A DNA stretch of 64,000 bases, from positions 31,374,501 through 31,438,500 of the forward strand of contig OY727094.1 of assembly GCA_963402885.1 (NCBI GenBank), written 5' to 3'. The notes below the pieces were generated by a model. The model saw nothing but the letters and a program-made list of their open reading frames with translations. It made no database searches and was not told the DNA's origin. Source of the DNA: Antedon bifida (taxonomy: Eukaryota > Echinodermata > Crinoidea > Comatulida > Antedonidae). This document shows positions 209-63,928 of this stretch, piece by piece; positions within the stretch are counted from its first letter, which is position 1, and each line of letters begins with the position of its first letter. The position numbers were made by a program, and so were the translations under genes.

Positions 209-3200
209 GTCACAGAAAGCCCTTATGAATACGAAAATCATGTGAAACTGATCAAATTCCTAAAAGAATCTGGGGAATTGGAAAAACTAAGAGATGCACG
301 GAATGCAATGGCCCAGATATTTCCTCTCACTGAAGGTATTTTATTAGATCTATACTATTGACTTTGATATGCCTATAATACTACTAGCATTCTCCCGACC
401 GACCGTATTTAAAGTATTATTTACATGCAAAAGTATTTATATTTAAGATCTTTTGTGTATTCACTTGCTATAAGGTCAAAGGTGAACTGTGCTGATTTTA
501 GAACCTCTTTTTGCTGTGCAACTGGCCTGACTTCCACAGAAACTAGTATCTATTTAGCCTATAGATCATTGTGCTTCTTTATTCAAGGGTATTTTGTCAT
601 ATGATTAACAATTTATTTATTTGCCATAGAGTTGTGGTTGGAATGGGTGCAAGATGAGATTAAGCTAGCCTCAACAGAAGATGAAAAGAAAGCAGTGCTG
701 GAGCTGCTTGACAGAGCTGTTTCTGATTACCTTTGTAAGGACCTTATTTCAGATTATAGTCACCATAAACACTTTATATACCATTTGCTATTACAGTAGT
801 TTGTATTCATAAAATGTAAATGTTTTCATTTCCATTCTCCCTTTATGCATACAGTAAGAGCATGGCATGAAGATCCTGACCGCCACAGAAACTAGTATCT
901 ATTTAGCCTATAGATCATTGCGCTTCTTCATGCAAGGGTTGACTTTGACTGGTAGTGTATGAACTACATTATTCCAGGGACAATAGTAGCAGATCCCGGA
1001 TTTTGAAATATTTGGGGGCCTACAATTTGAAAAAAGCTCTGAACCAATGTTCTATATTTTGCATTGTATTTTTTCCATATTTATAATAAAATCAGTTATG
1101 AAAATGAAATTGCCAGTTTATGGTTACCACAGCAGTTTTAGTATGAGATGCAAATGAAATTAATAAATGGAAATAATTAATATAATAATACATGTAATAC
1201 ATTTTTTTAAAATAGCTATTAGCCTTTGGCTAGAGTACTGTCAGTTCACCATTGGTGGCATTGGAACAGAAGCGGGTCTCGCTAAAGCACGGGATACATA
1301 TGAAAGGGCGGTCTCTGTTGCTGGTCTTCATGTTACTCGTGGTTCACTGATATGGGATTCTTACCGTGTTTTTGAAAATGCCATATTACAGAGTTTGCAG
1401 GTTTGTGCTTGGATCATAGAGATAGTATTAAACTACAAGGGTGACTATATATATTCTTATAGTGAGCTTTGATTGTGTTGGGAGTTGACACTCTAGTAGT
1501 TTAATAGCATCTTTGGTTCAGATTAAAGAATAAGATATAATGATAACGTAAGGTTTCCAATTAAAGACCACTTAAGTTTTCAGTATTTGTACAATCTCTA
1601 TAAGCACTAACTCAGGCTTATATTGATTACAGCCTCAGATTGGAGCTGTTCAAACAAGTGAAGAACAGACGAAATTAGAAGAACAAGAAAAGCGAATTGA
1701 AAGCCTCTTTAAAAGACAGCTTTCTACACCTCTTCTTAGTAAGTAAAAAAGTAGAATATTTAGTGAGATAATCAAAATCTGGCTCATGTGCACTGTAAAG
1801 AACCTAGTATATCTTTCGAGATGAGTAGGGGTTACCCCGGTGCACACACAGCCACTGTCACACACAGACACTTATCATAAACTCATCAAGAGGACCCTTG
1901 ATTTTAAGCATACACTGTTTGGGGTCACCCTCTATAAATAAGGTGAAATAAATAAATAAAAAATAATTTCTTTTAATTTCATAGGGTATCCACACAATAG
2001 TCAAGTGCTATTTGTTAGCAGTTGAACTTCTGTTAGTCTGTAGTTTGAAAAATTCTCTTCTGTGGGAAAAAAGGGGGCGTTTGTTTTGTTTGTTTGACCC
2101 CTAAACACCCCCTAACTACAAGCTTCTGGTTACATGATAACATACTATAATAGTTTTCTTCAAAATTACTTTATTTAAAATCTTTTTAATTAACAAAAAC
2201 TCACATTGTCATGTTTGCTACTTAGAAAGTATTTGATAATTTTCTTTATTTTTTCTACAGCCATGGAAGAAACCTATCTTGAATTTCAGGAGTTTTTGAC
2301 CGATGGCGTTGCTAAAGAAATCACGGATGATTACAACAAAGCATTATGTCAGCTTAAAGCTTATCATAAATATGAAATAGCTCTTGTAAGTTATTCATTT
2401 TTAAGTGATTTGTAGAATTTGTTTAAAAAAATGAATATTATACAAATAATTGTTTATGAGCGTAATGGTACAAATAATGGCATGAGGTCAATGATGAACG
2501 GTTATATTTCAACGAGGCGAAGCTCTGTCTACACTATCAAACTAGTTGACAAAAACGTGTGATGTGCCCAAATATGGTAGTGATGTGCCCAAATATGGTG
2601 GGGTTATATATGCATATATGGATATATATAAAAAAATTTTTTTTTCGCCCCACACAGTTTGATAGTGTAGACAGAGATTTAGAACAGTTGCACTCACAAA
2701 GACAATCAATCAAAAGTAAACATATAGAAATATGTACAGTATAAAAATAAGTGTGTATTTTTTCACTTCTGTCTCCTCTGTGTTTTAATAGAATAAAGCT
2801 GAAGCTCCTAGGCTAGCGGAGTATGAAAATTACATCAGAGCACTCCAGTCTAAGGGTGACATTAGAAGGCTACAATGTATATACGAACGAGCGCTTGTTG
2901 AAAACTGCCTGAATGCTTCTCTATGGCAGGCATATACTAAAGCTATGGTAAGTCTCATTGAATCAATTTTAATTAAACCTTTTCGTTTCGTTTATTTTCC
3001 ACTCATTTAAATGCATTTAAACAAACATATGTGTACAGAGTATAATATATGAGTGGAAGGAGGTCACAGTAAGTTCATTGAACTTTAAGTCGTGATCCCC
3101 GTATCAGTATAATAATAAAAATGCTACATTTTTAAAAATGCGGGTACATTTTGTTACTACTGTACATAAATACTTCTAGATTCATCCCTGATTGATTGAC

Positions 3201-6200
3201 TACCTGTGTGCAAAATATCTCAATTTATTTACCAATCTTCCCTTCAACAATGCAATTTCAGCATCAAACCCATGCTTTTTAAACCCATATGAACCTCAGA
3301 AAAATCCTGGATCTGTTACAGGATTTGAACCAAAAACCCTGGGATTGGTAAGCAAACATGTAAACGACCAAGCCATAGTACCACTATATTTTTATTTTAC
3401 TCTTAGGATGAGGATTATAGAGTGAATCACGAAAAAGAATTAAAAGACAATGAAAATGTGTTTTACCGGTACCATCAACCTCTGGAAGCAAGAGAAGAGA
3501 TGATGACAGATGTTGAAAGTCTCCAGAAACCAGAAAGAGGCTCAGTCGATAAAGAAAAAAACCAAAATGATTGTCAAAGCCTTCTGAACATTCATAAAAG
3601 AGCTGTTAGAAATTGTCCTTGGTCAGCATCGCTTTGGATTGGGTATCTGCGTGCAATGGAGAGATTAAAACAGCCACATACAGACATATTAGGTAAAAGC
3701 TATATCATAGTTGATATTTCAGACTTCTATATCTATTTTTCACTGTATTCAGAAGTAAAGTGTATGTACATTTGGAGTGGAGTTGTGGCTTGGTGGTTAT
3801 GATGCTTGGCTACCAGTCCTGGGTTCAAGTCCTGTCATTTCAGGTTTTTTCTAATGATAAATTACAACTCCACTTCTAACGACTTGTAATAAGGCTTTGT
3901 CTTATATAGAGCATCTTGTGTCTATGTTACCCGTCACAAGTTTTTTTGGAGGGAGACCTCCAAATGTTATTACTTTCTGGGTTTTGCCTCTTAATTTTTT
4001 TATATTTAAATTGTTATTTTGTTTACTTTGAAAGATAAGAAATAAATGTTATTATGAATGTTTGTCTTGTAAATGGGATTACCATCTTTAAGAGGAATAT
4101 TGATTGAATTCGCTTATGGTTATCCTTGGCAATTTGCCTAAATATATATAACGAATAGAAATAGAAATAATAACACAATTTGTTTTACATCCCTTGTTCC
4201 ACTTGACAGGTGTATGCGAAGAAGCTATTCTAGCTGGCTTCTCCAGTTCTAACGAGTACTTAGACTTTTGGACAGCGTGGCTAAATTATCTTAAAAGACG
4301 GATTCAATGGAAATCTACTGCAACTGTTGCCCTGCAAGAATTCCGTGACACAGTTCAGAGAGCAATTGATTTTATGAATCAATGTGAGTATTTTTATTTT
4401 TGAAGAAAAATTTGAACATAACATATTATACAAATAATGAATGTTTATTTGTTTTATTAAATTTATCTATCGTAAATCGTTGACGAATGCTAGGCCGGGA
4501 AGCTAGGCCATTTAAAAAAGACGGTGCTCCAACTTTAGACACGGAATAGAACAGTTATTGATGGCATGCACAACAAGTTGATTTCCATGGAAATTTCTCA
4601 AAATTGTTACAAAAAGCTGAACGTGCAGTAGAGCCATTAGTTAGTTGAAATTAGATGAAACTTGATGCGTAATACCAATCAAATTACATGAATACAATCA
4701 AGTGTATTATAAGGAAAAATAAACATTTTTTATTTTCTTTCATAATAAATTAATTTAGTAAATGTAATATATTTTCATTTTATACTCAGACTTTGGAGGC
4801 CAGGGAGACAGTTTGTATACTCTGCAAAAATACTGGGCTAAAGTTGAGGTAAATAATATGTTCCTAAATTTTGTTTAAAAAAAAGACAAAAGTTTTATTC
4901 AATGAAGGTTTAAAGATGTATTGTCCCCCAAAAAAATGAAAAATGAAGATTAGTAAAATCAGACTTTAAATAGGCCAGTTTCATAAAAGTTATTCACTTC
5001 TGTAAAAAAAAAGACCAAAACAAATTGTTATTTCACTTATAAAAAGACAAACAAACCAGTTAATTTTTACCAAAAACCATTGTCTGACAGACAATTGAGG
5101 TATTTTTTGCTTTAAATACATTTTTTTCAGGTAAATCTTTTTTTTTTCCGATCAAAGTTTTATTACACAACATGAAAATGGCATATTAAAAAAAAAATGT
5201 TTAAAAAAAATAGTTTAGGTTGACAAAGTATCTTTAAAGAAACTATGTTTTTCATCTCAGATGCATTACAATAATAACCTTGACTTTGGGCGAGAACAAT
5301 GGAACACTATTCTAACTGAAACTGAAAATGGATATAAGGCCCAATACTGGTTGGAGTATTACCAATTAGAACTGTAAGTATTGTCCCAGCCTTTTGAAAA
5401 AGTACAAGTCACCCATGATCGATTTCTGAAACAGAGGCAGTGGCGTAAAGCAGGTGGAAAAGGCCCCTGGTTTAGCACTACTATGGGGCCCTCCAACACT
5501 GGGTAGTTGCATTGGACGGCTCATGCTCTGGCTTAAGCTCTGGGGGCCCCTGGGTTTACCCAGTGAGCGCTCATAGCCATTACACCACTGAACAGAAGAC
5601 ATGCTCAGATCAAAATTATAATGTCAAATTATTATTAATAGAAAATATGGTGACTTGGAAACATGCCGTGAAGTGCTCTTACAAGCTGTTGACATGGAAA
5701 CAGACACGCCTCAGCAAATCTGTGAAACTCTACTAAACTTTGAGCGTGAGTATGGCTCGCTCAACTCGTTTGAAGAGTCTAACAGCAAGGTTCAGGTTAT
5801 ACTAGAAGCTGAGGAAAAACACAGGCTAAAGGTATTTATCAAGCGTTTTTGTAAATAAGATTTTCTTTTACTTTTCTTATCCATTTTATATTGTAACGTT
5901 AATCGGAAAATGCGTAGTGTTCCACATATAGTCTGTATCTGTCCTGAGCGGGTTTCTGCTCAACAGTCTGCTTTGTGTAAAGGGTTGTAATAAATAACAT
6001 AGATTCTATATTTTTGTTTTCCGCTTACCGTTACCACTCGTCTGTGTAAATTAGCCTTTATATTAATCATTATTGTTGAAATAATGACTTTTGGAATGCA
6101 GAGATATTGTAGAAAAACTTGTGAAAAATGTTTTTTTGTTTGTTTAGGCTGCAAAGAGGGCAGAAAAGAAAATGGCCAAAAGCGGTGGTGGTAAATTCTG

Positions 6201-9200
6201 GCAGAATAAGAGCAAAGCAGATGACGAGGGAATTGACCAAACAGACTATAAGCGTAGGGGGAAAGAAGACTACAAGCAGAAGGAGAGGTCAGGTGACAAA
6301 AGGGACCAATCAAAATGGAAGAAACCAGACAATAGAGGCGAAGGTAGAAAAGAATTTCATAATAAAGATATTGAGAAAAGGAAGAAGCAAGAAAAGAAGA
6401 AACAACCAGAAAAAAAGAATGGAAAAGCAGAGGAAACTAAGCGAGAACCAATGAAACGAAAGGTAAGAGTAAAGCTCTGTCTACACTGTCAAACTAGTTT
6501 TGACAAAAAAAATGTGAATGATGTACCCAAATATGGTAGTGATATGCCCAAATATATATAAGAACATCACATTTTTTTGTCACATATAAACTTTGATCGT
6601 GTAGACCGAGCTTAAAGGCAAAATTATGTGTGATGGACAGAATAACCTTTACTCCTTTCATGGTAGTGATATGACATCATCATGTCTATATATGGGTATA
6701 TCACATTTTTCAACAAGGTATTTGTTTGTTGACAGGCTGAAACAGAATCAGAAGTATCGGCTAAACACGCCAAAGTGGATGGTGATGGGTTCGTTGTACC
6801 ATCATTTCCAGTTTCTGCATCCCTCAAATCACCTTCCAAAGCAGCACAGAAGCCACAAGCTGCTTCCCAAGAAACCGAAGAGGCTATATCAGGAAATAAA
6901 GGTAAGTAATAGTTCCGTTCAGCTTTATTTAACCCCAAAGGCTCAAGTCATAGTACAGTCAACTCTCCCAATACCGGACTCTCTTAAAACCAGAAACTGT
7001 CCCAAAACCAGACTTTTCTTAGGGACCAAAATGTCCCAAATTCCTTTTTACCATTAAAAACACATTCCGAATACCAGACTTTCCAAAGGTTTCCGGTATT
7101 GGGAGAGTGAACTGTAGTTCCTCCCTGGACCATGCACATAAAAAAAATATAATGTTTTAATATATTTGTATAGCATGTTCCACAAAAAATGTTTCAATGC
7201 GTTTTAGTGAAGTGGAGTTGTTTGTCTTCACCCAGGAGAATTAGTGTTTACTGGCATAGTATAATAATAAATAATAATAAATTATATTCTATTTTTTTCA
7301 TTACAAATAAAAGATTCTGAAATGGATGAAGGTGTACAAAAAGATACAATAAGTTACCGTGACGACTTAACAGTGTTTGTGAAAAATCTAAGTTATAACA
7401 TATCTGAAGAAAAGATACGAAGCGCGTTTGATATGGTAAGTTTTGATTTTATTTACTAGAAAATAATTGAATAAAATTAGAATATTAGATAAAAACCATT
7501 AATAAGATCATCATTAAAAAAATCCATCAATACAATTGTAATGCTACATACATTGTGTATACAATAATAATATTAGCAGTATTATTAGTATTATAATTAT
7601 TAAGACATAGTGTCCCCTTGAATAATATATATTTTCCAATTTTTTTTGTTGTATATGCCATTTTGATAATAATAGTTATTCACTTTGACCAAAAAATTGG
7701 ATTAATAACAACATTTATTTACCTGTAAAAAACTGTAATTTAAAACAAAAAATAGTCAAATTGGCTGCCAGCCAACAGGTTTTTGATTGAATTTAACCAT
7801 TTGTTTTGTCTTTTTATAAGTGAAAGCACTATTTTATTTTTATGTATTGTTTTTTTGTACGGATGTGATTAACTTTATTAAAGCTACAAAATGGCCTATT
7901 CAAATCTGATTTTAGTAGTCTTCATTTTTCATGCTTTTGGGGAACAATTCATCTGTAACATTTTTTCAACAGTGTGGTGAAATTACTGAGATTAGGATGA
8001 AAGTTGGAAATAAAAGCAAGTTCCGTGGTTACTGCTATGTTGAATTCAAAGATAAGGTACTTTTTTTTTTTATATGGGGTGTGGGTTTACAAGATGAGAT
8101 CTATCCTATTGCCATGTAGAGTTTAATAACATATGAACAGATATATTTTGTTTAATATTAAAGGCAACTGTGTTTGAAACTAAAATATAAAGTTTATTTT
8201 TTAGGAATCCGTAGAGAAAGCCTTAAAACGTGATCGCTATGAAATCGATGGACGACCGATTTACGTTGATCCTAGCGTAGACAAATCAAAAGGAGATCAA
8301 AAAACGACAAAACAATTCAAGGTAAATCGGTTACTACCTTCTTTTTGAAGTAACCATGTTTAGGTAACATGCCTCCCCTAACCTAGTGCCAGGGTTGTAA
8401 CTCACAACTTTCTCTACTCCACGCCATAAAGCTTCAAATGAGACTTAAGCTTTGTCTACATTATCAAACTAGTTTGACAAAAGAAAAGTGATATGGCAAA
8501 ATATGGTAGTAATATGACATCATCATGTCCATATATGGGCACATCACATATTTTTGTCACATAAAGTTTAATAGTGTAGACAGAGCTTTAGTTTATAAGA
8601 AATATAAAAATGAATAAAAATTAAATTATTTTTTTATTTATTTTATGTCATTAGTATGATACAAGTCTCGACAAAAAGAAGTTGTTTGTTTCTGGATTAC
8701 CACGATCGACGACCAAAGAAGATCTTGAGAAGATGTTTTCAAAGGTAAGAACCATTTGTGGTTGCTTAAGCTACACACTACTACTACACTATCAAACAAG
8801 TTTGACAAAATAAGTGTGATGTGCCCAAATATGGTAGTGATATGCTTAAATATGGTAGTGATATGACATCACCATGTCCATATATGGGCACATCACATTT
8901 TTTAGACAGAGCTTAAAGCTCAACCCACCGCCAGCATTACATGCTGGTTTGAACTGTGAATGATGTTATAATAGTAGATATGTATTACCAGTATTTTCAA
9001 TTATAATAATACATGTGATGGAGTATGAATTATGTTATGATTTAAAATATATTTCTCTTTCAGTATGGTGTTGTAAAAGATGTCCGAATAGTGACATATA
9101 GAAGTGGTGTACCAAAAGGTCTGGCATTCATCGAGTTTGAAAAAGAGGTAAAGAATTGAGAATACAGAGTAGGGGATCGTCTACAGAGTAGGGGATCGTC

Positions 9201-10370
9201 TACAGAGTAGGGGATTGTCTACAGAGTAGGGGATTGTCTACAGAGTAGGGGATTGTATACAGAGTAGGGGATCGTATACAGAGTAGGGGATCGTCTCTGG
9301 GTGTGCAGATCTGGTAGGCGCTACATTGCTGGCTAATGTGGGTCTGTGGAGGGCCTAATCTGAATTTCCTCAGTTTACAGTTAAGCTTGAGGACCTGAAT
9401 ACCTTTACCTTTTACAGTCAAACTTTACCTATTAAGTCTATGCCTCTATTAAGGGGGCACTTTCCAGTGAAATGATCCTAACTTTTGGTGTCCTCTGAAT
9501 ATGAGTCAAACTGTATTTAACGGTTCTCCCTTTCTTCAGTTATTCCTCATCATATAATTTAACATTTTTATTGCCAGAGCGAGGCATCAAGTGCCGTATT
9601 AGGAGCTGACGGTACTGTTATTGGCGAGCACACTGTTTCCGTTGCTATTAGTAACCCACCAACACGGAAACCACAAGCAGGAACGGCTAAGGAGTCTGCT
9701 GCACCTCCGGTTTCTCTTGGAGCTAAGTATGTATCGTTTTTACTCTTACTGTATATCAGAAAATGCTAACTTTCAAACTGTCCGGCTCTATTCCTGGTAC
9801 AAATATTCCAAAGAATTGCTCATCAATAATATTAGGGAGCTTTGCGTTATTGGGGCTAGGATCTACAGCTCTATCTACACTATCAAACATCATGTGACAA
9901 ATAAATGTGATGTGCCCATATATGGACATGATGATGTCATATCACTACCATATTTGGGAACATCACATTTTTTGTCAAGTGGGAAGCACATCCATGACAT
10001 AAGTTATTCCTTGGTTGTAGCAAAACAAAGGCTACCTACTCGTAGTGTAAACTATTATTGTGAGCATCCTCTATTTTAACTCTGAATAAAATATGCATCC
10101 AATTTTTAATTTAGGGCGTATGTGATCATCTTTAAAAAATTTATTATGTACTTTAATTTTTATTCTTACAGAGGTATCTCGGGACCACGAGGAAAAAGTA
10201 GAACACAGATTGCACTTGTTCCGAGAGCTGTAAAGCGCCCTCAACCTAACAAGCCTAAATCGATTGATAAAACTGAAACCATGGAAACAGATGCAACAGA
10301 AAAAGCCGACGCATCTGTGAAGGCAAAATTAACAAATGCTGATTTTGCAAAAATGTTATTAAAAAAGTAG
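209..10370 (+). CDS. SART3: SART3 homologue (U4/U6 snRNP recycling factor), exons 2-to-last; N-terminus outside window
   Basis: Twenty exons join in phase to 983 residues plus stop: 209-335, 630-734, 1216-1400, 1633-1738, 2261-2385, 2792-2947, 3407-3692, 4210-4383, 4790-4848, 5261-5373, 5642-5831, 6148-6462, 6736-6901, 7314-7435, 7973-8056, 8205-8321, 8655-8744, 9064-9147, 9578-9726, 10172-10370. All introns are GT-AG. The first eleven exons encode half-a-TPR (HAT) repeats, with recognisable segments such as FPLTEELWLEW and WLEY. Exon 12 is a Lys/Arg/Glu-rich nuclear-localisation type linker. Exons 14-16 form RRM1 (VFVKNL; FRGYCYVEF), exons 17-19 form RRM2 (KLFVSGLP; PKGLAFIEF), and the last exon ends with the LSm-binding motif NADFAKMLLKK. 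The family reanneals U4 and U6 snRNAs in the nucleus and recruits USP15/USP4 for histone and splicing-factor deubiquitination. About 110 N-terminal residues of the human protein have no counterpart here, so they lie upstream. Exon 7 carries an extra charged stretch relative to human. Exon ends were chosen by eye; exon 14's acceptor has a weak pyrimidine tract. Confidence 0.95.
534..939. repeat. Local direct duplication in a SART3 intron (two ~57-bp copies)
   Basis: The stretch at 534-590 (beginning CCACAGAAACTAGTATCTAT) recurs at 883-939 with a few mismatches. The two copies flank SART3 exon 630-734, one in each neighbouring intron. Nothing coding is seen in them. Confidence 0.85.
2520..2681. 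mobile_element. MITE-1 copy (intron of SART3)
   Basis: MITE-1 is a non-coding inverted-repeat element defined here by its copies in this window. The consensus left end is TAAAGCTCTGTCTACACTAT followed by CAAACTAGTTTGAC, and the right end is its reverse complement ending AGAGCTTTA. The outer TA is present at both ends of well-kept copies, which suggests TA target duplication as in Tc1/mariner-type MITEs. The middle repeats GTGCCCAAATATGG and TGACATCATCATG. This copy has two CCAAATATGG sites (2568-2577, 2589-2598) and a divergent AT-rich centre. Confidence 0.85.
3300..3385 (-). mobile_element. tRNA-derived SINE head (minus)
   Basis: Read on the minus strand it has an A-box-like TGGCTTGGTCG (3365-3375) and a B-box GGTTCAAATCC (3321-3331) at tRNA-like spacing. 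It ends about 20 bp before the acceptor of SART3 exon 3407-3692. The tail is not clear, so only the head is called. Confidence 0.55.
3775..3845 (+). mobile_element. tRNA-derived SINE head (plus)
   Basis: It has an A-box-like TGGCTTGGTGG (3786-3796) and a B-box GGTTCAAGTCC (3822-3832). It resembles the minus-strand head at 3300-3385 and lies on the other side of the same SART3 exon. The body may extend further to the right, but no tail can be fixed. Confidence 0.6.
4909..5240 (-). mobile_element. MITE-2 copy (minus orientation), just upstream of a SART3 exon
   Basis: MITE-2 is a non-coding element of about 330 bp with inverted ends of the form TTTAAAGATGTATTGTCC. Inner landmarks are TTCATTTTTCATG near one end and a GGCTGCCAGCCAA segment in other copies. 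Here the left end is intact (4909) and the right end reads GACAAAGTATCTTTAAAG (to 5240). The acceptor AG of the following SART3 exon is at 5259-5260. Confidence 0.75.
5438..5590. mobile_element. hAT-type MITE with 8-bp target duplication
   Basis: The ends are inverted: CAGTGGCGTA at the left and TACACCACTG at the right. The flanks read AACAGAGG (5430-5437) and AACAGAAG (5591-5598), an 8-bp target duplication with one mismatch. CAGTG ends plus an 8-bp duplication are the hallmark of hAT transposons. No transposase is encoded in 153 bp. It lies in a SART3 intron. Confidence 0.8.
6471..6615. mobile_element. MITE-1 copy (intron of SART3)
   Basis: Both ends are present, with small changes (TGTCAAAC at the left, GTAGACCGAGCTTA at the right). 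One CCAAATATGG site is kept. The left end begins nine bases after the donor of exon 6148-6462. Confidence 0.85.
6659..6710. mobile_element. MITE-1 internal fragment
   Basis: Only the centre is left: TGGTAGTGATATGACATCAT, then a CATGTCTATATATGGGTATA-like stretch and TATCACATTTTT. The CArG-like site is mutated to CTATATATGG. It sits just upstream of the acceptor of exon 6736-6901. Confidence 0.65.
6956..7114. mobile_element. pogo/Tc1-like MITE flanked by TA
   Basis: The left end CAGTCAACTCTCCCAATACC and the right end GGTATTGGGAGAGTGAACTG are near-perfect inverted repeats, each flanked by TA (6954-6955 and 7115-7116). The CAGT start, TA target and length fit non-autonomous pogo/Tigger-like elements. 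No open frame is seen inside. Confidence 0.8.
7600..7955 (+). mobile_element. MITE-2 copy (decayed), just upstream of a SART3 exon
   Basis: The body matches the copy at 36992-37335 closely around AATTGGCTGCCAGCCAA and TTACCTGTAAAAAACTGTAA. Both terminal repeats are eroded (GACATAGTGTCCCC at the left, GGGGAACAATTCATCT at the right). The following exon starts at 7973. Confidence 0.7.
8447..8590. mobile_element. MITE-1 copy (intron of SART3)
   Basis: Both ends are present (AAGCTTTGTCTACATTATCA; GTGTAGACAGAGCTTTA). The centre carries TGACATCATCATG and one perfect CCATATATGG. Confidence 0.85.
8768..8915. mobile_element. MITE-1 copy, ends damaged
   Basis: The left end is scrambled (AAGCTACACACTACTACTAC) and the right arm has lost its CAAACTTTAT stretch. 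The centre has CCAAATATGG and CCATATATGG sites. Confidence 0.75.
9163..9295. repeat. 19-bp minisatellite, seven units, next to a SART3 splice donor
   Basis: The unit is CTACAGAGTAGGGGATCGT with C/T and C/A variation. It begins 15 bases after the donor of exon 9064-9147. Each unit gives one GGGG run on the transcribed (sense) strand. Confidence 0.95.
9867..9979. mobile_element. MITE-1 copy, right end lost
   Basis: The left arm (AGCTCTATCTACACTATCAA) and the centre are present, in the opposite orientation to most neighbours (CCATATATGG then TGATGTCATATCA). The right arm stops after TTTTTTGTCAA. Confidence 0.75.
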
Positions 10371-10424
10371 TGTGAACAAAAAATAAATTGTCAATGGACG
10401 TGGATTTTTTAATTTTTTAAAAGA

Positions 10425-10430
10425 AATAAA
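10425..10430 (+). terminator. Candidate SART3 polyadenylation signal
   Basis: AATAAA lies 55 bases after the stop. Further AATAAA hexamers occur at 10382-10387, 10566-10571 and 10908-10913. Which one is used cannot be read from the sequence; all sit before the septin start codon at 11382. Confidence 0.4.
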
Positions 10431-11381
10431 TTATTTTAAGCATTTTATACGATTTTAAACTCTGAGGAAGTTTTAAAAAGTTGTTCACTAGTCCTATATA
10501 TGAACAAGCAACTGTCCATAAGTTGAACATAAATATTTGCCGAATTTTAAGAGTGTTCATGACATAATAAATCTTTCGTTGTATAGCACCTTAATGGTCA
10601 CTAGTTAGGTTCCCACTGACCACGGAGGTTACTTCCATGCACTGACCCTCTAATATTAGACTGTTACTGACCATACAATGTACTGACCTTCGATAAAGGT
10701 GGACAGTGAGGATCGGTAAATTGGTTAAAATGCTGAAAACCCTTAAAATGAAAGGCAAATATAGTTAACAGATTAATTTTAGTAAAACTATACATTGTCG
10801 GTATAAGCAAGGCAAATCTATTGCCTTGGTATAAGGCTGCATTTTATTTTTTTTTAATGGTGAAACTATCGCTGTTGTATGAAGTTGTAGAACTCATTGT
10901 ATGTCAGAATAAACATTCACTGAGTCTACATCGAAATGCGTATTGTTTAATTTAGTATCAAAAATTAGATCATTTCATTTTAACTGTCAAAGGTGTGTGT
11001 CTCTCACTTTCCCCTGATTCATGAGATGGATTTCAGTTAGATGAACGTACAAACATTATTATATGACATTTTGTACATGCTCCTTATCTTTTTTTTTATA
11101 AAAAAACTCTATTAATATTTTCATTATTAAACAATAGGCCTACAAATTATTGATACTGTTTGGATGAATGTCAATGAATATTGGTTTACTCCAGAGGGCG
11201 TAAACTGATCAAAATTGTTGATGGGAGTGTACTCTGCCTGCTGCGGTGTGGTGTGGGAGTGTTGGATTTCTACTGGACAAGGACAAAGTTTAGTTGTGAA
11301 AATTGCTGTTTCGTTCTACGTTTAAGCTTCTTTTTTATTTTAATTTATAACACGGTGCTCCTACCTAATTCCTGAATAATT

Positions 11382-14300
11382 ATGGCTTTGTCAGATAAAT
11401 CAAATGTAAGTAAATTTTGTGGTAAACACGTTTTAGCCTAGGCCCAGCTAGGCCTAGGCTAGGCCCAGACTTACTTCGCCGAAAATGTCCTTTGACAGCG
11501 GACATGGATCGTGTCATCAAGTAAGATGAGAAGTTTCCTCGATTCTAAAAATGGATGAAATGAATCATCTATTAATAGTTTACCTTAAACACCATATTGA
11601 TAGGCCTATAGTATGCCAGATTGTAATATATTAATTAATTTATATATAAGAGGTTGATAACAATATCAATAAATGATGAATTTATGAAAAGAATTTCCAA
11701 ATAATTTTACAGTACCTTCATGCCATTAAAACTAGTCTATTTATATCAAAGTGTAGTGTAGGAGGCTACAGTACTTTATATACAATATAAATCAAGTATT
11801 GTATAATATAATATTACAATATAACGTTTGTTCTGGTTGTGTTGACTTCTTTTATTCATAAACCAGTCAATTTCAAGCTTGGCTGACTCTCTTGTACTTT
11901 TTTTACATACCAAAAATAACTTTAACAATTTAATTTACAGCAAAAGCAGTATACAACAATGTTCCAATTTCTGGTGATATCTAAATTCAAATTTCTCTTT
12001 GTATGCATTTTCCATTCATTGCGTACATTTTACACAAAAAAAACCTGCTGTATAAAGTACAGTTATGAATTTCTGTAATGAATGAAAAGTTATGTTGGGC
12101 AGGACCATATCCCATATACACTTCAAGTTTAGGTCAGTCGAAATATTACCAGTGGTGGATCCAGAAATGTAAAATAGGGGTCCCAGGGCCTAAAAGTAAT
12201 TAAATAAAGTGCTGAATCTTTTGCATTATTACAATTTGTAATGGCTATTCCAATGCCCCCCTCCCCCTTGATTACAATCAAGGTTTTATTATATATTCAA
12301 TTTCATTCATTCATTTACTCACATTTATTTTAAACATTCCAAAAAATTAAAAATAAGCATACAGTTAAATGGTACAATATTAGGAACTGTTTCAGGGATC
12401 CGAATTAGAAGTAAGCTCTGTCTACACTATCAAACTTTGTGACAAAAAAATGTGATGTGCCTACAGTATGGACATGGTGATGTCATATCACTACCATATT
12501 TGGGCATATCACACTTTTGTCAAACTAGTTTGATAGTGTAGACAGAGCTTTATATCAATAATATAAACACACTAAATAGGTGTTTCACATGTTTTTTCAC
12601 AGTTCACTAATCCAGAGACACCTGGCTATGTAGGCTTTGCGAATCTACCCAATCAGGTGCACCGAAAATCAGTTAAAAAGGGGTTTGAATTTACGCTTAT
12701 GGTTGTTGGTAAGTATTTTAAATTGATTGCCGAAACCTAACCTGAACCTATTTGCACTGTTGACATACATCATCATGGCTTTGACGCATCAATTATTTTC
12801 TGTTTTAATAAACGAACATGTTTAGCGGAGTAGCACTAATGTCAATTTGGCTGCAAGGTCTCTGATCTAACCATTGAAGACAGGAAACTAAAAATTACTG
12901 GTTATTCATCCTAAAGTGTCTATTGACACTTTCAAATGTCTAGCTATATACCCAACATTTTTGTATGTTCCTTGAGGAACCATACACAAACAAAGCTTTG
13001 TTGTATACACACAGGTGAACTTTTCAACCAAATCAATAAATAATAATTCATATTCATTAAAAAATGAAATATGTTGTGTTTCAAATTAAATAAAAGCCAG
13101 TAAGATGAGATATGAAGTAGATGTGGTAATTAGAATTTAATTGAAATCTAAAGCTCTTTCTACACTATATCAAACTTTATGTGACAAAAAAATGTGCTTT
13201 GCCTATGGACATTATCAGATGTCATATCACTGCCATATTTGGGTATATCACTACCATATTTGGGCGCATCGCACTTTTTTTGTCAAACCATGGAGGAAAT
13301 ATCCTCGTTTATAAACACGACACCTAAATGGCACAGTAGTTTAGACCCTGTGTTTTAAAATCATTTGAACCTCAATTTTTAGTAATTTTAGCCTGTGTGT
13401 TTTTGTTTTATTTTGTCTTTTACTTTTGTATTGCATAAAAAAAATGCATAAAAATGTCATAGTATAGACCTATTGACATAGATAAATTAACTAAAATGTT
13501 TTTACCATTATATTTCAACAATTTTTAATTTTGGCTAATGACCGATTCATTTGACTAAATAAAAAAATTGGACTTTAGCCATTTTGGCTATAGATAAACT
13601 GATTTGACTAAAAAAAATATTTTGACTTTCGCCAAATGGCTAAACAAAATGAAATGTTAGTGCTACCCCAGCATAGGTACTCTTAACCTTGAATAAACTG
13701 AAACCAGATGTGATTATGAAGTTGAATTATGTTAGGAGATAGTCTTCATAATTTAGGTATAGTTTCAATATCAATTAATATTTTAGCATACTGTATATCC
13801 TCCATACACTACTAGAATATTATTAATTATTGATAATTACACTAGATCTTTTTAATTCAGTGCCGAAACTTATTTGCAGGCCAATGCGGGGTCTGATAGC
13901 AAACTACTTATTAATCATATTTATTGTTTGTTTTATCTGGAGGTTCAGACTTAAAGCCATTATGGCTTATTGAAATCTCCTTGCACAATGAAATGTATTA
14001 TTTAATATTTATCATTACAAATGTATAATATGTTGTGTGAAATAAACTACACAAAAACTACAACATCTGAACATGTGGAATACTGCTGTAATTTTAATAA
14101 ATAAAGTAATTATTTTAATTTTTTTTAATAAATAAAGTAATTATTTTCTCATGGCAAAATAATATAGACCAGAGTGTAATGTCTGTAGACATACAGTATA
14201 GTACTCATATTCTTCAAAGGATAAATTTGAATTTGATATTTCCATGAGCCATTAGGTTGTTAAATGGATAAATTTGATATGTTCATGATGGCCAATTATG

Positions 14301-17300
14301 AAGATATGACTGGAAACATTATTTCACTTGATAGAACCATTATCCCTGTAGAATAAACTGTAGATGGTACAGTATACTGTATAATTAGTCCATTATTGAG
14401 AGAGAGAGAAACAAAAGTGTACAGAAACGACTGACAAATAACAATTTACTGTTATGCGATTACTTGATAAACAGCATATTTGTTATAAGATATTCATGTT
14501 ATTAAAAATATCTATCTATGAACTGTTTTGAATTGTTTTTGAAACATTAATTAATATTATGCTATGATATTAGACCAAGTGCAGTTACTAAGCAATGAAA
14601 CCACTTCAAGTTTAAAGATGTATGGTATAATTTTTTTTAATATGCCATTTTAATGTCACATAATAGTTATACACACTCAAAACAAAATTATGTACATGAA
14701 AAAGCTGTAATTGAAATTAATGCAAAAAAATAGTCAACATTTTTGGGTATTTTGGTTTAATTTAAACCGTTTATTTGTCTTTTTTAAAGTGAAAACATTA
14801 TTTAAAACATTTTTTTTTGTACGGAGTGATTAACATTATAACTGCGAAATGGCGTATTAAAATTCTTTTTTCATTAATCTTCATTTTTCATGTTTTTCAT
14901 ATCAGATACTTACTGTAAAGCAAGTATAGTATTTAGAAGGTAGTAATACTGTACAGTAGTACAGTGATAAGATGTTACATAATAATCAAACCTTTTGTTC
15001 AACTATAAAATTAGCGACATAATCATTTTTTAATGTGATTTTTTTTTTTAGTGAATGCAACATATTAAAAATGACCTGTAACCCCCTACCATTTACATTA
15101 TGACAAAAAGCTGTTTAAATTTAAGTGGTGAAGACGTATTTCCTCTTATGTCTATGAATCATCTGTCAATAAACTACAACTAGTAAACAGGGAATTGCCA
15201 TTTGCCCTTTGGTACAATTACAGCATTATAGTCAGATAGAATATTGAGGATATTAAATATAGTTGGTTTTACTTGCTTACTTTACTCTAATGATTTGATT
15301 TCAATGTTCAATTTTATCTTGTAAAGTAAAACAAATTTAATACAAAATATGATATCACTTTCAGTACATCAGTACTGACCTTTTAGTTACCTCATAATCC
15401 AAATTATTGTAGATCTCTGGTATCTTGCTACAGGTGGAATTTCTTACTTGTAATGACATATTTCTACTCTGACGAATTTTGAAGTGTTGTCAATGTAAAG
15501 CTCTGTCTACACTATCAAACTAGTTTGATGATCCCAAATAGGTTAGCGATATTATCATCATGCTCATATATGGTAGTGTAGATAGAGCTTTAAGAAGTAT
15601 ATTTATGTCATAGTAAGTAAAGACAAATTAACTTTCCTCCTCCTGTAGTAATGCAAAGACTCGTCACAGTTGCTGTAGTTAAATTATCATCTTGTCTTGT
15701 CATCAAAATTTATAATTTGCATCAATTGCCTGTCTACAAATATCCACATTATAGTTACTTTACATATTTATTATCCCAACTCCCTGATTATCTTACATTT
15801 ATGATATTTTTCAGGTGAGTCTGGTCTTGGTAAATCTACTCTAGTGAACAGTTTGTTTCTTACTGATTTATATCCAGAAAGACAAATCCCAAGTGCTGCA
15901 GGTAACTATATATTAAAACAATATGAAATATCACCCTGTAATTGTTGCTTCTGCTGATACCCCTGTTTTTGTGATTCTGCTACTATTATGCTGCTACCAT
16001 TGTTGCTGCTGCTTTTATGCAACTGTTGTGTTGCTGCTACCCCTGTTTTTGTGCTTCTGCTAATATTATGCTGCTACCATTGTTGCTGCTGCTTTTATGC
16101 AACTGTTGTGTTGCTGCTACCCCTGTTTTTGTGCTTCTGCTAATATTATGCTGCTACCATTGTTGCTGCTGCTTTTATGCAACTGTTGTGTTGCTGCTAC
16201 CCCTGTTTTTGTGCTTCTGCTAATATTATGCTGCTAGCATTGTTGCTTCTGCTTTTATGCAACTGTTGTGTTGCTGCTACCCCTGTTTTTGTGCTTCTGC
16301 TAATATTATGCTGCTAGCATTGTTGCTGCTGCTTTTATGCAACTGTTGTGTTGCTGCTACCCCTGTTTTTGTGCTTCTACTACTATTATGCTGCTAGCAT
16401 TGTTGCTGCTGCTTCTGTTGTGTTGTTGCTGCTATGGCTGTTTTGGGTTGCTGCTACTATTGTGCTACTGCTTATGTACTGCTGCTTTTATGCAACTGTT
16501 GTTGTGTTGCTGCTACAAACTGCTCATTTTGAGTTCTGTTGATATTGTTGCTGCTGTTGCTTATGTACTGTTGCTTACTATGCAACTGTTATGCTGGTCT
16601 CTTTGCCTTTGTTGTGTTGCGATTTGGGTTTATTCTTGCAGTTGATGTTGCCATCCATTACTCCGATTGCTTTGGCTGATACTTTACTGTACCAATTGTT
16701 TAATTGCCTAGTTTCTGCTCCTAAATGTTGATTCTACTGTACTCTTATTGTAGATAAAATAGACAAAACTGTAAGCATTGATGCATCAACTGTTGAAATA
16801 GAGGAGAGGGGAGTAAGGCTTCGGTTGACAGTGGTAGACACACCAGGATACGGTGACGCCATTAACAATCAAGATTGGTATGTATTATATAAACTGCCCC
16901 AAGAAGTTGCTAATGCCACTAAATAGTGATACAGTAGCTTAAAGGAAAGTATCTCAAATGTAGCCACTCTCACAACCTCTTGGTACTTGGTGCATTGCAG
17001 CTTGGTGCATTGCAGCTCAAAATGGAGTTATACTGGGATTGTTCAGAAACGTATATAAAATTTAAAGGAAAACTTAGAGAAAAAAAATTGCATTAAAACT
17101 GGTCTTGATTTAAATAAGCCTCTTTGTCGGGCTGTGTAGTGTGTAGTATTGGCAGATCCAGGATTTTGAAAAGAATAATGTAAAAACCAGCTAGTACCAA
17201 GCATAAAGTGTTAAGCTCTGTCTATACTATCAAACTAGTTTGACAAAAAACGTGTGAAGTACCCAAATATTTAGTGATTGACAACATCATGTCCATATAT

Positions 17301-20300
17301 GGGCACATCACATGTTTTTGTCACATAAAGTTTGATAGTGTAGACAGAGCTTTAGATGCATTTACAAAGTAGACAGAGCTTAATATTTGATATTTCTTTC
17401 TTTCTAACTTTTTTTGTACAGTTTCAAACCTATCCTGAAATACATCGACGACCAATATGAGAAGTACTTAAACGATGAGAGTGGTTTGAACAGAAGACAC
17501 ATAGTGGACAATCGAGTACATTGTTGTTTCTATTTTATCTCACCCACAGGACATGGGTAAGGCTATTGTAATATATAAAGCTCTGTCCACACTATAAAAC
17601 TAGTTTGACAAACAAGTGTGATGTGCCCAAATATGGTAGTAATATGGCCAAATATGGTAGTGATATGACATCATCATGTCCATATATGGGCACATCACAT
17701 TTTTTTGTCACATAAAGTTTGATTGATAGTGTAGACAGAGCTTTAGATGCGTCTACAAAGTCTTGAGGATTTCCATGGATAGCTCAGTCATTAATCTTTA
17801 CTTCACAAGTTTTTATTGATTTTCATCTGGATTTAACTTTGTACTTTACACGGTCGCTTGGAACTATGTAGTGACCTTTCAGATATATCTTTTATGAAAA
17901 TGTATATATCATGCTGCGTTCATGCAAACATTTAATGTGTTATCCATTCAGTTTGCATGAGCTTGACTATCTTCCGGTTCTCGGTTTCCATGGTGCTTCA
18001 TTTTTTAAACACAGCCATAATATCTTTTTTTTGGCCATTATTTTCAGCGGTTTTGTAAACTCTTTATATAATTGCATGAAAGTTTTTACAAAATTATTTA
18101 TTATGTTGATAAGTCGCCTTCAATTGTAATTTTTTTTATCATAGATTGAAACCACTTGATGTTGAGTTTATGAGGGCGCTTCATAACAAAGTGAACATCG
18201 TGCCAGTGATTGCAAAGTCCGACACTCTCACTAAACGTGAGATACAAATGCTGAAAGCTAAGGTAAAGATATTGTGATAGTGGGTTAAACCTAATTATGT
18301 TATGAAACTTGTGAGATGTTAAGTTGTGGGTCCTGTGTATAAAACCGACATGTGGGCACAAAAAATTCTGTGGCCATATTCACCATTTACACTTAGGCTA
18401 AGGAACACTTACCCTTAAAATAAAAAAAAATCTAAATGAATACAATTTAAGGGAAATACTGTACTTAAATATTTATTGAGTTAAGTGAAATACCTAATAT
18501 TAATTTTCAAGGGAAATATCTCACTTAAATACGGCCACTGTATTAGAAGCAAACAAGTTCCCAAAGAGAAGAAAACAACATTCAATAAACTTAGCTACTA
18601 ATTTAGCAGTCAGGGGAAAAATGGCAAAATTTTTCCTACTTTCTAGGATTTTTATCAGATAATCTATATTGTTTTGACTACTCTTGTAACATGACAACAG
18701 TGCTGATTTTGCCATTTTTCCTCTAACTGTTTAGCAGGTTGTTGATGGTACACCAGGAATTTGTCACTAATAGTGTATAATGTTATAACATTCCATAAAT
18801 TACATCCATAAAAATGATAAGACATTTCTGTTTATAATATATATTGTTTTGACTACTCTTGTAACATGACAACAGTGCTGATTTTGCCATTTTTCCTCTA
18901 ACTGTTACATTACATCCATAAAAATGATAAGACATTTCTGTTTTTATAAACTTAATAGATTATGAATGAAATTGATGACAATGGCATCAAAGTTTATCAT
19001 CTTCCTGACAGCGACTCGGATGAGGATGAAGATTTCAAAGAGCAAAACAACTCATTAAAAGTGAGTAGAAACTTATCGTTTAACATGTTTTCTCAAATTA
19101 TTGTTATTGACGCCACAATGAATGTAACCATTTTCAAATACCAGATAATGTTGGAGATAAGCCAGAAATAATACAAATCATTTTGTCTCTCTGTTGAATG
19201 TGTACCCCACCTGTTCCAAACCTGCCACGACACTTTAATAAACACAACGTCCAATCAACTAACTGTATAATTAATCAATACGTCAGATTGATTGCCGGAA
19301 AACCGGTTGAGCTGATCAAAGTGTTATCAATTTGACATTCACTTAGCCATGCTTTTAGACCACAATTGTTTAGAACTTTATTCATTCACAATTACAATGT
19401 TCAATAGTACCAACAGAAGCAGTGTGGATTTCAGTATCCACCATACAAGACAACATTCATGACCAAAAACAAATTGAAATAAAATATGTACATAATAAAA
19501 AAAATATCAATATGGGTCGCCCACGACCAGTCAGCACCTCCGGTGGGGCACTCTCCTGCGGGGAAAAGGGTGAGATGCCCCTTTACTTTAATAGTGACGT
19601 TGTAACTGTAAATAAGGTGTAAAGTGGAGTGCCATGTATGGAATGCTACGAATGCCTTTAATCCATTCCAGAGTGGTATGAAACGACAAAAACATCTTGT
19701 AAATATTAATAATGTACAATACAACATTTATGAGAAAAAATCTAGATGTGCGTTATTCAAATCTGTGAAATCCATGGTTCTGTGATATAACTGCTGGTTC
19801 TGTGATATAACTGCTGGTTCTGTGATATAACTGCTGGTTCAAATCCTGTTCGAGACAACAATATCTTTGGTTCAAATCTTGAGACATTCTATTGTGTAAC
19901 AACAATGTCTTTCATCACACATGCTCATCAAATGTTACTTTTGTTTTCAGCAAAGTGTACCATTTGCGGTATGTGGTTCAAGCCAATTGATAGAAGTCAA
20001 AGGAAAGAAGGTCAGAGGTCGGTTGTATCCATGGGGAGTTGTAGAAGGTAAGCAACATATCATTTTTTGCTTTTACATTTTTTTTTTACAATCAAAATAA
20101 GAGTAACAAAATATCATTTTTTAGGTTTTTAATAAATTTCATGTTCTAATTTAAATCTTTTTTTTTTCTAGTTGAGAATCCTGATCATTGTGATTTCATT
20201 ATGTTACGTAGCATGCTTATGTAAGTTCTGGATTTTTTTAATTGTTGGCGCCCTTCGTTCCGACGACGCTGCAAACTTAAAAGCGTGATTCCAAAGCAAA

Positions 20301-23300
20301 GTTGCTTTTCATTTTGTCCAATCTACCCACACACACACACACACAGATATCTTACATGTAATAAGCCTAGGCATGTAATTAGCCTTATTATTCTCCAGCT
20401 GCAGTAGTAGGCCAAATGTTTGGCTACTGTCTCTATGGTATTGTAGATGTTTTACTTGATTGTTAGCAAGTATGAAATCTGTGCCTTTAAACCTAGCATT
20501 GAACTGGTCTACCGCCCTCACTTGTTAGGGTGTTTTACCTCATGTTTGTTAATATAGAATAATTTGTTGTTTTTTGCTTTATATTAAATTATTAGTTTAT
20601 TTATTTGCTTAATTTTTAACAATGATATCTTGTTTATTTATTAACTAAATTATTTGACTTTAGAACTCATATGCAAGATTTACAAGAGGTGACCCATGAG
20701 GTTCACTACGAAAACTTCCGTTCCGAAAGGTTAGCAAAAAGTGGAGGGGGCACTGCTGCTGTTAAGACCAGGTAGTGTAAAAATGTTTAATTAGACTTAA
20801 TATACTACAAGTTATATGTATTTTCCTTGGAAAAAATCAATTGACCCATTCTCTTGATTTGTTAATGAAGTTAAAAATTTAATTGAAATATTACAATACA
20901 ATACATACTATTTTTATGAATTCTACAAATAATTGATGAGGTTTTTTGTCTTTTGTTATATAGCGCTGGTAAACGAAAAGAAAGTTCTTCAGATAAGGAC
21001 CAAATCCTACAGCAAAAGGAAGAAGAGGTAGGTCATTTTAAAGCTCTGTCCACACTATCAAACTTGATGATGTCAGATCACTACCATGTTTGCTACCTTT
21101 TTTTGTCAAACTAGTTTGATATGTAGACAGAGCTTTACCTATATGTTTGTTTGGGTGATAAAAAAAATGCAAAAAGAATTTGATGGAAAGTGACCAATGT
21201 ATATCGCCCCAAAGACTTAGAGGTTGCACATCTTCCCGTCTTGCTTAACAATCCAAAAAAAGAGTTTGAATATTTTGCAATGTCGCCATCTAGAATAAAA
21301 TTGAAATTTTCTTAGAAAGAACGTCAATTTCAAAATTTAAAGAATCAAATATTTATCTCCATTAACATCATGTTTACTTTAAAAAAAGAATATATGGAAT
21401 TTTAATTTGTCATTTATTTATTTTTGCACAAGTCAAGGGGCATTAGATAAGTGTACCATACCACCACAAATATTTCAATCTAATTTTTTTTTTTCAATGT
21501 GGTTTTGTCAAATCTTGTTTTTTCAGTTCATTTTATGTGTTTTTTTTTTCTATTTATAAATATGTCATGTACTGTTTTTATGTTGGCCAAGGTTAGCCTA
21601 TGTGCCAGAGACATTTATCAACAGGTGTCTGGGCAAACCTCATCACAATTGTTATTTAGTCCATGCCTATGTCCTCGCTTGTGGATTTCCCCCGATTGAA
21701 TGCGTTGATCCGAGTGAAATACTCTCTGCACACGCCTACGTTTGGACATCTTAAGGCAACTCGGGTTTCGTAAGACTTAGAAGTTGAAAGGTTAATTGAT
21801 TTATTACAACACAGATGTGCAAGGTCAAAGTCAAAGACTGAGCATGTGTTTTTTTTTTGTTTGGTCTGTCTGTCTGTCCTTGTGAGTCAATCCAATTGGA
21901 ATGTAACGTGTCTGAAATTAGGTGTCTATTATATAGCGCTGTTTTTGAACATAAAAACGCATGTTAACTTTCCAAAATGTGGTGTTACATGGTTTAATTT
22001 CCGGCCTACTTGTATGATTCTCATTTTATACTACAATAAAATAGATGGTGCTTTTCATTATCATTGTTGCCATAATAATATCATGATGGAATTATGTATA
22101 CGGATGAGGAGGTAAATGTTGCAGTATCTATAAATAGCAACACATTTTTTTTTCTGTTTGGATGAAATTTTAAAATCATTGGGATATTGATTGAAAATAA
22201 CTGTGTCTTGGTTAAGCCCTGTCTTACACTATTAAACTTTATGTGACAAAAAATGTGATGTGCCCAAATATGGACATGATAATGTCATATCACTACCATA
22301 TTTGGGCATATCACCACCATATTTGGGCACATCACACTTTTTTTTTATCAAACTAGTTTGATAGTGTAGACAGAGCTTTAGATAGAAGCCCATCTTTTTA
22401 TGATATGATTTGAATGATAATGTTTTACATTGGTTGATTACCCACGCTAGTACATAGACAAAATGTGTAGATTTTGTGCCTTGCTAATCAACCCTGACTT
22501 CTGTATAACCTATGTCTTCACACATTCTATGTTTACCGTTGATCCATCCCGGATATCCAGTTGACAGGCCGTAGCATAAACCAGCCCTCTTCACAAGTTG
22601 AAATTTGCGTAAAAAGGCAGATGCGAGTGGTGGCCATAACCAGGCCCAGCTGCCGATGTGGACACACTCACCCCTTTAGGGTAATCAACCTCAAAAATGT
22701 CAAACTTCATTTCAAAATGTTTCAATCAAAATTTTGAAAATGTATTGTAACAATTTTCTTGAGGATTTTTATATATTTTCAACGTTATTATGTTTATGTA
22801 AATCAGATTAGATTTAATATTTCAATAGTTAACACCTTTACGTGTCCCAGAAATTTCCTGTTAGTTTGTTATTTTTTCCGTTTTTTCATTCCTCTCTCAT
22901 ACAAATTCTTTGCCAAAGTTATGATTCTTGCAATTTCAAAATGGCGGAAATTTATGAATAAGTATCTAAGGAATTTGATAAAAAAGGATAATAAATTACA
23001 TTGAACATTGAATAGTATGATTCCAGTTAGTATTCCTTTGAATCTATTGTCTAATAAAAATAAATTTAAAAAAACAATATTTCTACAAATTTGTCATGTT
23101 TTGGAAATGACAACAACAATTGTGTGCCTCCCTATATTATGAGAGATTTGAGTATTTTTTGTATTCTTTGAGAAAGGATAAAAAGATGTTTTTGGAGTAT
23201 TTTATTTTTGATATTTCTACAAATGTGTCATGTTTTGGAAATGACAACAATCGTGTGCCTCCCTATATTATGGGAGATTTGAGTATTTTTTGTATTCTTT

Positions 23301-63740: not shown

Positions 63741-63928
63741 ATCAAATGAAGCAGAAAAGATTTTTATGTTTTTTTTATATAGATACAAGTGCACGTTTTC
63801 TCCATTTCCCCAGCCGTCCGTTCCCAGACGTTCTGTTTTTACGTGATGTGACCTTGTTGCGTTGGAAGTTTAGAAAAGTTCAACAAAGAAGTTAAAATTT
63901 TGGGGCCTATAAAGAAAACAAAACATCT

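What the first reader, a model, noticed from the sequence alone, without database searches (positions are those of the whole stretch)
2520..22380. A MITE family that carries SRF-type CArG boxes into introns
Seen: MITE-1 copies repeatedly contain CCAAATATGG, CCATATATGG or CCATATTTGG, each matching CC(A/T)6GG exactly, up to three per copy (for example 17577-17745). They also carry TGACATCA/TGATGTCA, an ATF/AP-1-like palindrome. Known: CC(A/T)6GG is the binding consensus of serum response factor. Inference: this element may have spread SRF-like sites through the genome, including the introns of a septin, a cytoskeletal gene of the kind SRF often controls.
Basis: partly seen in the sequence, partly recalled or inferred. 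Interest (0 to 1): 0.75.

Follow-up and report, generated by a model that had tools for sequence, protein, structure and literature searches.

The report
Mobile DNA copying SRF-type control sites
A short jumping DNA element carries up to three sequences matching the binding site of the muscle and growth regulator SRF and has copied them thousands of times through one animal genome, but they are wearing away almost like the DNA beside them, so most look like passengers rather than working switches.

Summary
The window has 27 CC(A/T)6GG sites against 5.3 expected; 23 lie in or beside copies of one ~167-bp fold-back MITE. Genome-wide, CCAAATATGG occurs 23,761 times against 450 for the reversed control; I estimate 24,000-30,000 pieces. 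The boxes are the core of a ~21-bp repeat unit, two direct copies in one arm and one inverted in the other, so the consensus needed one CArG origin (about 1% by chance), not three.

The host has SRF, 80 of 82 core residues identical to the solved protein. Binding is plausible but untested.

The functional inference is not supported. Genome-wide, the right-arm box is intact in 63.8% of places, its neighbours in 58.6% and 61.0%: a weak advantage at most. In 53 copies not chosen for the motif, boxes are no better kept than matched stretches. Two copies flank a septin exon, but six pieces lie in SART3. Best reading: CArG boxes spread as passengers of a transposon repeat unit, perhaps transposase-binding (inferred). 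Superfamily and target-site duplication are unresolved. Plant precedents exist: E2F-site MITEs and PHERES1 Helitrons.

The parts
2520..2681 (+). MITE copy, 2 CArG boxes (2568, 2589), within the SART3-like gene
   Evidence: (81.9% to consensus); gene:
6470..6613 (+). MITE copy, 1 CArG box (6527), within the SART3-like gene
6660..6710 (+). MITE fragment (consensus 80-130) with TGACATCA, no intact box
8447..8590 (+). MITE copy, 1 CArG box (8529)
8784..8903 (+). MITE copy, 2 CArG boxes (8825, 8878)
9864..9966 (-). MITE copy, 2 CArG boxes (9916, 9948)
12413..12552 (-). MITE copy, 1 CArG box (12494)
13149..13288 (-). MITE copy, 2 CArG boxes (13233, 13254)
15496..15528 (+). MITE end fragment (consensus 1-33), no box
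17213..17354 (+). MITE copy, 1 CArG box (17293), in the septin intron upstream of exon 17422-17556
17422..17556 (+). septin exon between two MITE copies
   Evidence: Pfam Septin 3.5e-19 for the frame 17408-17557; splice sites read by eye
17576..17745 (+). MITE copy, 3 CArG boxes (17627, 17648, 17680) and TGACATCA (17666); starts about 20 bp after the 5' splice site
21039..21137 (-). two MITE pieces (21039-21069, 21074-21137), no box, TGACATCA at 21068
22214..22380 (-). MITE copy, 3 CArG boxes (22264, 22296, 22317)
40410..40570 (-). MITE copy, 2 CArG boxes (40460, 40492); the stretch 40405-40570 folds as a long hairpin
55215..55369 (-). MITE copy, 3 CArG boxes (55266, 55295, 55316)
63928..64000 (-). 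MITE piece cut by the window end, no box

Best explanation
This is a non-autonomous fold-back DNA transposon (MITE) of about 167 bp, present in an estimated 24,000-30,000 pieces. Each arm is built on a ~21-bp unit whose shared part is GTGATRTGCCCAWATATGG. Two units stand head to tail in one arm and one inverted unit stands in the other, and the middle of the unit spells a CArG box (shown). The boxes therefore multiplied because the transposon multiplied (shown), and copies afterwards decayed nearly neutrally (shown for the right-arm box genome-wide and for 53 held copies). I infer that the units, 21 bp apart in one arm and 32 bp apart across the centre, served the transposon itself, most likely as internal binding sites for the transposase that moved it. 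SRF, whose DNA-binding core is almost identical to the solved SRF, can probably bind intact copies as a side effect (inferred). That would make them mostly idle or decoy sites, with at most a few taken up by nearby genes.
For: One repeat family holds 23 of 27 window CArG sites. CCAAATATGG 23,761 vs 450 reversed control; CC(W)6GG 65,912 vs 17,178. Arms are inverted repeats: 31 nt at 90% and 26 nt at 88% complementarity; DNA hairpin z = -8.4, 0 of 200 shuffles as stable. The three consensus boxes share flanks well beyond the 10-bp CArG. Neighbouring CArG sites under 130 bp apart in held DNA: 21 bp 28 times, 32 bp 22 times, 53 bp (= 21 + 32) 7 times, eight other spacings once each (most of these loci were chosen for likeness to a three-box copy). 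Masked-pattern decay: box 2234 of 3500 intact, left neighbour 2234 of 3814, right 9-mer 2234 of 3664. 880 of 1266 altered boxes are damaged in CC or GG. In 53 pieces not chosen for the motif, boxes differ from consensus at 4.0, 7.1 and 8.7% of sites against a 5.0% mean for 21 overlapping composition-matched 10-mers. SRF core 80 of 82 identical to PDB 1hbx.
Against: The right-arm box has about 16-18% fewer losses per site than its two neighbours; its 95% interval does not overlap the left one's. Adjusted for G/C content its loss is 0.74 of expectation against 0.93 and 0.88. This could be weak constraint, mutation context, or subfamily variants inflating the neighbours' losses. In the held copies A/T sites change less inside boxes (3.3%) than outside (4.7%), though G/C sites change more (11.6% vs 8.2%). 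In one search's listing 8 of 15 boxes altered only within W6 stayed A/T-only (hand count), against 42 of 136 A/T-site changes outside boxes. No transposase with these ends was found in 30 of 150 scored Harbinger-type matches, so transposase binding is inference.
Confidence: 0.6

Rival explanations
1. The transposon gained by carrying SRF sites: SRF binding opened chromatin or drove expression where transposition counts (germ line, early embryo), so the CArG units were selected in the mobile lineage though later copies decay.
For: Both decamers match CArG sites used in published work: CCAAATATGG is the SM22-alpha proximal CArG and CCATATATGG the Egr3 CArG. The unit has been duplicated. The host SRF core is almost unchanged. 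At least one CArG in a shuffled consensus occurs in only 1% and two or more in 0 of 20,000. The box is slightly better kept than its neighbours.
Against: The repeated unit extends well beyond the CArG and asymmetrically, which the SRF consensus does not require (recalled). One origin plus duplication explains all three boxes. Nothing here shows binding or expression.
Confidence: 0.13
2. Host uptake: many copies act as SRF-dependent enhancers, so the family rewired cytoskeletal or muscle gene control.
For: Box slightly better kept than neighbours; two copies lie in septin introns, one about 20 bp from a splice site.
Against: In 38 of 100 listed places the box is no longer CC(W)6GG (hand count). 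In unselected copies boxes are kept no better than matched stretches. Six of 17 window pieces lie in a SART3-like gene, not a cytoskeletal one.
Confidence: 0.08
3. Plain coincidence: the repeat unit resembles CArG by chance and has no binding role at all, the 21-bp units having arisen by slippage in an AT-rich fold-back element.
For: A 1% chance per consensus, with many known transcription-factor motifs and many repeat families to look through, makes one such match unremarkable.
Against: Unit repetition in both arms at regular spacing.
Confidence: 0.19

Closest known systems
E2F-site MITEs of Brassicaceae (Henaff et al. 2014, as told in the review PMC12595863; passages seen; the original not seen)
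   Same: MITEs multiply a 10-bp transcription-factor motif, most copies far from genes and possibly diluting the factor
   Different: Plant, E2F, with reported binding; here an animal, SRF consensus, no binding data
RC/Helitrons carrying PHERES1 CArG motifs, Arabidopsis (PMC6914339; abstract and section 7 read)
   Same: Transposons spread CArG boxes for a MADS-domain factor; motif present in family consensus, suggesting one ancestral gain
   Different: Helitron, plant MADS factor, ChIP-seq evidence and an expression effect; none of these here
CMITE of Acropora corals (PMC2872659; abstract seen)
   Same: Animal MITEs with a notable internal region, suspected to help transposition
   Different: Linked to piggyBac; the sequences were not compared here
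Galileo long TIRs with several transposase-binding sites (PMC3688188; search listing and start of abstract only)
   Same: Repeated binding sites inside long inverted repeats
   Different: P-element superfamily, THAP transposase, much longer repeats; only an analogy

Membership tests
MITE | Short (under ~600 bp), non-coding, high copy number | tested here: met
   167-bp consensus, too short to hold a transposase; 24,000-30,000 pieces estimated from 53 unselected pieces
MITE | Terminal inverted repeats | tested here: met
MITE | Target-site duplication | tested here: inconclusive
   45 of 66 rows had both ends readable; no boundary and length gave a clear excess; agreement of left and right W in 42 of those rows has Fisher p = 0.15
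PIF/Harbinger (Tourist-like) | 3-bp TWA duplication | tested here: inconclusive
   Ends mostly read TWA-AGCTC and GAGCT-TWA, but the left and right W often differ
PIF/Harbinger (Tourist-like) | Same terminal repeats on an autonomous element with a DDE_Tnp_4 transposase | tested here: inconclusive
   None flanking the transposase in 30 loci examined of 150 scored matches; one solo MITE copy in L070
Transposon-amplified transcription-factor sites | Motif present in the family consensus and enriched genome-wide through the repeat | tested here: met
Transposon-amplified transcription-factor sites | The factor binds the copies | not testable with these tools
   Only an SRF core 80 of 82 identical to PDB 1hbx was shown
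Host-exapted SRF enhancers | Boxes kept better than neighbouring element sequence | tested here: inconclusive
   16-18% fewer losses per site for one box genome-wide, no advantage in 53 held pieces

The most novel reading that the evidence does not exclude
An animal DNA transposon carries regularly spaced SRF sites because SRF binding helped it move, and by seeding over 20,000 exact SRF sites it turned a large part of the genome into an SRF sink and rewired a subset of cytoskeletal genes.
Probability: 0.1. Interest if true: 0.85.

Novelty: new member of a known kind. Interest (0 to 1): 0.4.

Why it matters
If SRF does bind these copies, one 315-Mb animal genome holds about 50 times more of one exact SRF decamer than of its reversed control, apparently nearly all from one transposon. 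That gives a natural test of how a conserved regulator copes with a flood of decoy sites, and whether a transposon can profit from or rewire the SRF network. If SRF does not bind them, it is a clear example of how repeats create misleading motif enrichment.

Tried and rejected
Target-site duplication: left boundaries -6 to +4, right boundaries -4 to +6 and lengths 2-9 were compared with cross-paired flanks; none stood out. Autonomous partner: Harbinger-type transposases were searched and 30 of 150 loci examined without these ends around the transposase; other superfamilies were not searched. An actin-gene search, to see whether host actin promoters use CArG boxes outside the element, did not complete and was dropped. 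A last genome-wide count of boxes that stay CC(W)6GG did not complete. The pattern with trailing Ns lost its Ns and served only as a 24-mer count of 4055; it was replaced. The decay masks cover the right-arm box only; the two left-arm boxes were tested only in held copies. The idea that three boxes per copy are three independent matches was rejected. Four TIR and unit strings gave no paper in the held library. Rows dropped: L009 (lies in the window), L041 (overlaps L040), and L008 hits overlapping L007, in the set used. One search's 66 rows include one L007/L008 duplicate. In one search, 1 of 42 and 5 of 45 altered stretches with more than three differences were dropped from the per-site rates.
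Full report
What is there. The window (G000:C7:31374501-31438500 of a 315.6-Mb genome in 27 contigs) holds 27 CC(A/T)6GG sites where 100 shuffles gave 5.3 on average and 12 at most. Of these, 23 lie within 25 bp of one of 17 MITE pieces. Pieces run over the whole window, not only 2520-22380. TGACATCA occurs 9 times against 3.1 expected, with 1 of 100 shuffles reaching 9; in the consensus it sits where the two arms meet. It is not a palindrome, being one base away from the ATF/CREB palindrome TGACGTCA (recalled).

Anatomy. From 66 near-full rows (one of them a duplicate, most of them chosen for likeness or for the motif) the consensus is about 167 bp. The ends are AAGCTCTGTCTACACTATCAAAC and its inverse. 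Inside lie two head-to-tail units of 21 bp, GTGATRTGCCCAAATATGGTA, then GTGATATGACATCATCATGT, then the inverted unit with CCATATATGG. Aligned on the box, the three units share GTGAT.TGCCCA.ATATGG, so the repeated thing is longer than a CArG box and asymmetric. Neighbouring CArG sites in held DNA are 21 bp apart 28 times, 32 bp 22 times and 53 bp 7 times. 53 is 21 + 32, a copy that lost its middle box. 21 and 32 bp are close to two and three turns of the helix (inference). One arm pair is 31 nt at 90% complementarity and the outer pair 26 nt at 88%. The single strand of 40405-40570 folds into a long hairpin, z -8.4, 0 of 200 shuffles as stable.

Scale. CCAAATATGG occurs 11,852 + 11,909 times genome-wide against 202 + 248 for the reversed pattern. 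CC(W)6GG occurs at 65,912 sites against 17,178 for GG(W)6CC. Some of that excess comes from elsewhere, for example a CCATAATAGG satellite at C1:451372-454581 in the listing. Using 53 pieces not chosen for the motif, I estimate 24,000 pieces from CCAAATATGG and 30,000 from a 34-mer. The second figure rests on 4 of 53 pieces. The window is richer in the element than the genome average: 17 CCAAATATGG or CCATATTTGG sites in 64 kb against about 5 expected from the genome count.

Can SRF read it? The genome encodes SRF in two exons on C14 (L040, L041). Its 82-residue core matches the solved SRF (1hbx; human, by recall) at 80 of 82 residues. The third Pfam match, L039, reads as MEF2 (family name recalled). 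CCAAATATGG is the proximal SM22-alpha CArG box (PMC7732823, one passage), and CCATATATGG is the Egr3 CArG box (PMC5746259, one passage). So binding is likely in vitro, by inference. L041, which reaches 1.2 kb before the SRF start, has no exact CArG, only two forms with one mismatch among the kinds I looked for.

Are the boxes kept? Test 1, genome-wide, right-arm box only. In the 34-mer G[ACATCATCAT]GT[CCATATATGG]G[CACATCACA]T, 2234 places are exact. Masking the box gives 3500 places, the left decamer 3814, the right 9-mer 3664. So the box is intact in 63.8 +/- 1.6%, the neighbours in 58.6 and 61.0%, and losses per site are 0.045, 0.054 and 0.055. Against expectation from G/C content the losses are 0.74, 0.93 and 0.88. 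The box is thus slightly better kept, by 16-18% per site. This is not clean evidence of constraint: the left decamer has visible subfamily variants, the right one adjoins a T-run, and mutation context was not modelled. In the 100 places listed for each, per-site rates in the box and in the right 9-mer do not differ significantly (G/C 8.6 vs 11.3%, p = 0.23; A/T 2.0 vs 3.2%, p = 0.25). Masking only the six A/T gives 2620, so 880 of 1266 altered boxes have damage in CC or GG, which destroys the consensus. In one search's listing of 100 places, 58 are unaltered, 4 altered but still CC(W)6GG, and 38 lost (hand count). In one search's listing, 15 of 100 are altered within W6 and 8 of these stay A/T-only, against 42 of 136 A/T-site changes outside boxes; the numbers are small.

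Test 2, held copies. In 53 pieces not chosen for the motif, the three boxes differ from consensus at 4.0, 7.1 and 8.7% of sites. 21 overlapping composition-matched 10-mers outside average 5.0% (range 2.8-8.9%). In the same set, G/C sites change at 11.6% in boxes and 8.2% outside, and A/T sites at 3.3% and 4.7%. Together the two tests give no strong preservation of CArG boxes; a weak effect is possible.

How surprising is a CArG in the consensus? Of 20,000 shuffles of the consensus, 1.0% hold at least one CArG and none hold two; the left half alone gives 0.9%. Since the boxes are copies of one unit, the relevant figure is about 1% for this one motif in this one family. Over many motifs and many repeat families that is unremarkable.

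Genes. Septin (SEPT2-like) exons: frames 15805-15954, 16732-16923, 17408-17557 and weakly, below Pfam's cut-off, 20150-20221. Copies 17213-17354 and 17576-17745 sit in the introns either side of exon 17422-17556, the second about 20 bp after the splice site (splice sites by eye). The six pieces at 2520-9966 lie among exons of a SART3-like gene. Frames 2792-3007, 3407-3799 and 5622-5855 match solved SART3 chains in order (2.1e-15, 3e-08, 6e-08). 10110-10367 matches LSM_int_assoc over its cut-off and 1167-1469 a HAT-repeat family over its cut-off. Pfam HAT matches to the first three frames are below cut-off. The statement about septin introns is therefore true for some copies only. Whether 12413-13288 and 22214-22380 lie in septin introns was not settled.

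Which transposon? The flanks mostly read TWA-AGCTC and GAGCT-TWA, but left and right W agree only weakly (42 rows, Fisher p = 0.15), and no target-site duplication stands out. DDE_Tnp_4 transposases are abundant (150 scored matches of 215 candidates), but 20 loci from two groups of near-equal score and 10 from other score groups show no such ends around the transposase; L070 holds one solo MITE copy. Superfamily unresolved.

Verdict. The boxes are real, their number is large, and those in the window come almost all from one transposon. The best-supported account is hitch-hiking inside a transposon repeat unit, likely transposase-binding (inferred), followed by near-neutral decay. Use by SRF is possible and untested. 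Plant cases of the same kind are in print: E2F sites in MITEs (review PMC12595863, passages) and CArG motifs in Helitrons bound by PHERES1 (PMC6914339, abstract and section 7). My listings showed no animal SRF-site transposon. They cover only the held open library, show the top 10-15 of 71-649 papers, and 'carg' in them also matches other words such as cargo.

Noticed in passing
G000:C8, about 21.5-22.2 Mb (loci L042-L045, L047-L053): Dense cluster of Harbinger-type transposase domains, many with identical scores and one TAA inside the match.
   Followed up: partly
G000:C1:451372-454581: Satellite-like run of CCATAATAGG at roughly 91-bp multiples, another repeat source of CArG sites (listing).
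   Followed up: no
L040:2986-3073: A diverged MITE piece (77% to consensus) lies about 1.4 kb past the second SRF core exon match.
   Followed up: no
window 44065-47568 (+): 1168-codon open frame with reverse transcriptase and endonuclease matches over cut-off and a PHD match below it: a LINE-type retrotransposon frame without a stop.
   Followed up: partly
window 15952-16590: Tandem repeat of about 80 bp immediately after the septin P-loop exon.
   Followed up: no
window 32931-50221 (-): Gene with an AMP-binding exon (49682-50221) and further minus-strand frames that look like a fatty-acid transport/acyl-CoA synthetase gene (name recalled; frame 36638-36877 had no Pfam match).
   Followed up: no
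L012, L018, L023, L033, L037, window 17746-17750: Many copies continue as TAGAT after the right end, hinting at a subfamily with longer ends or a palindromic target preference.
   Followed up: partly
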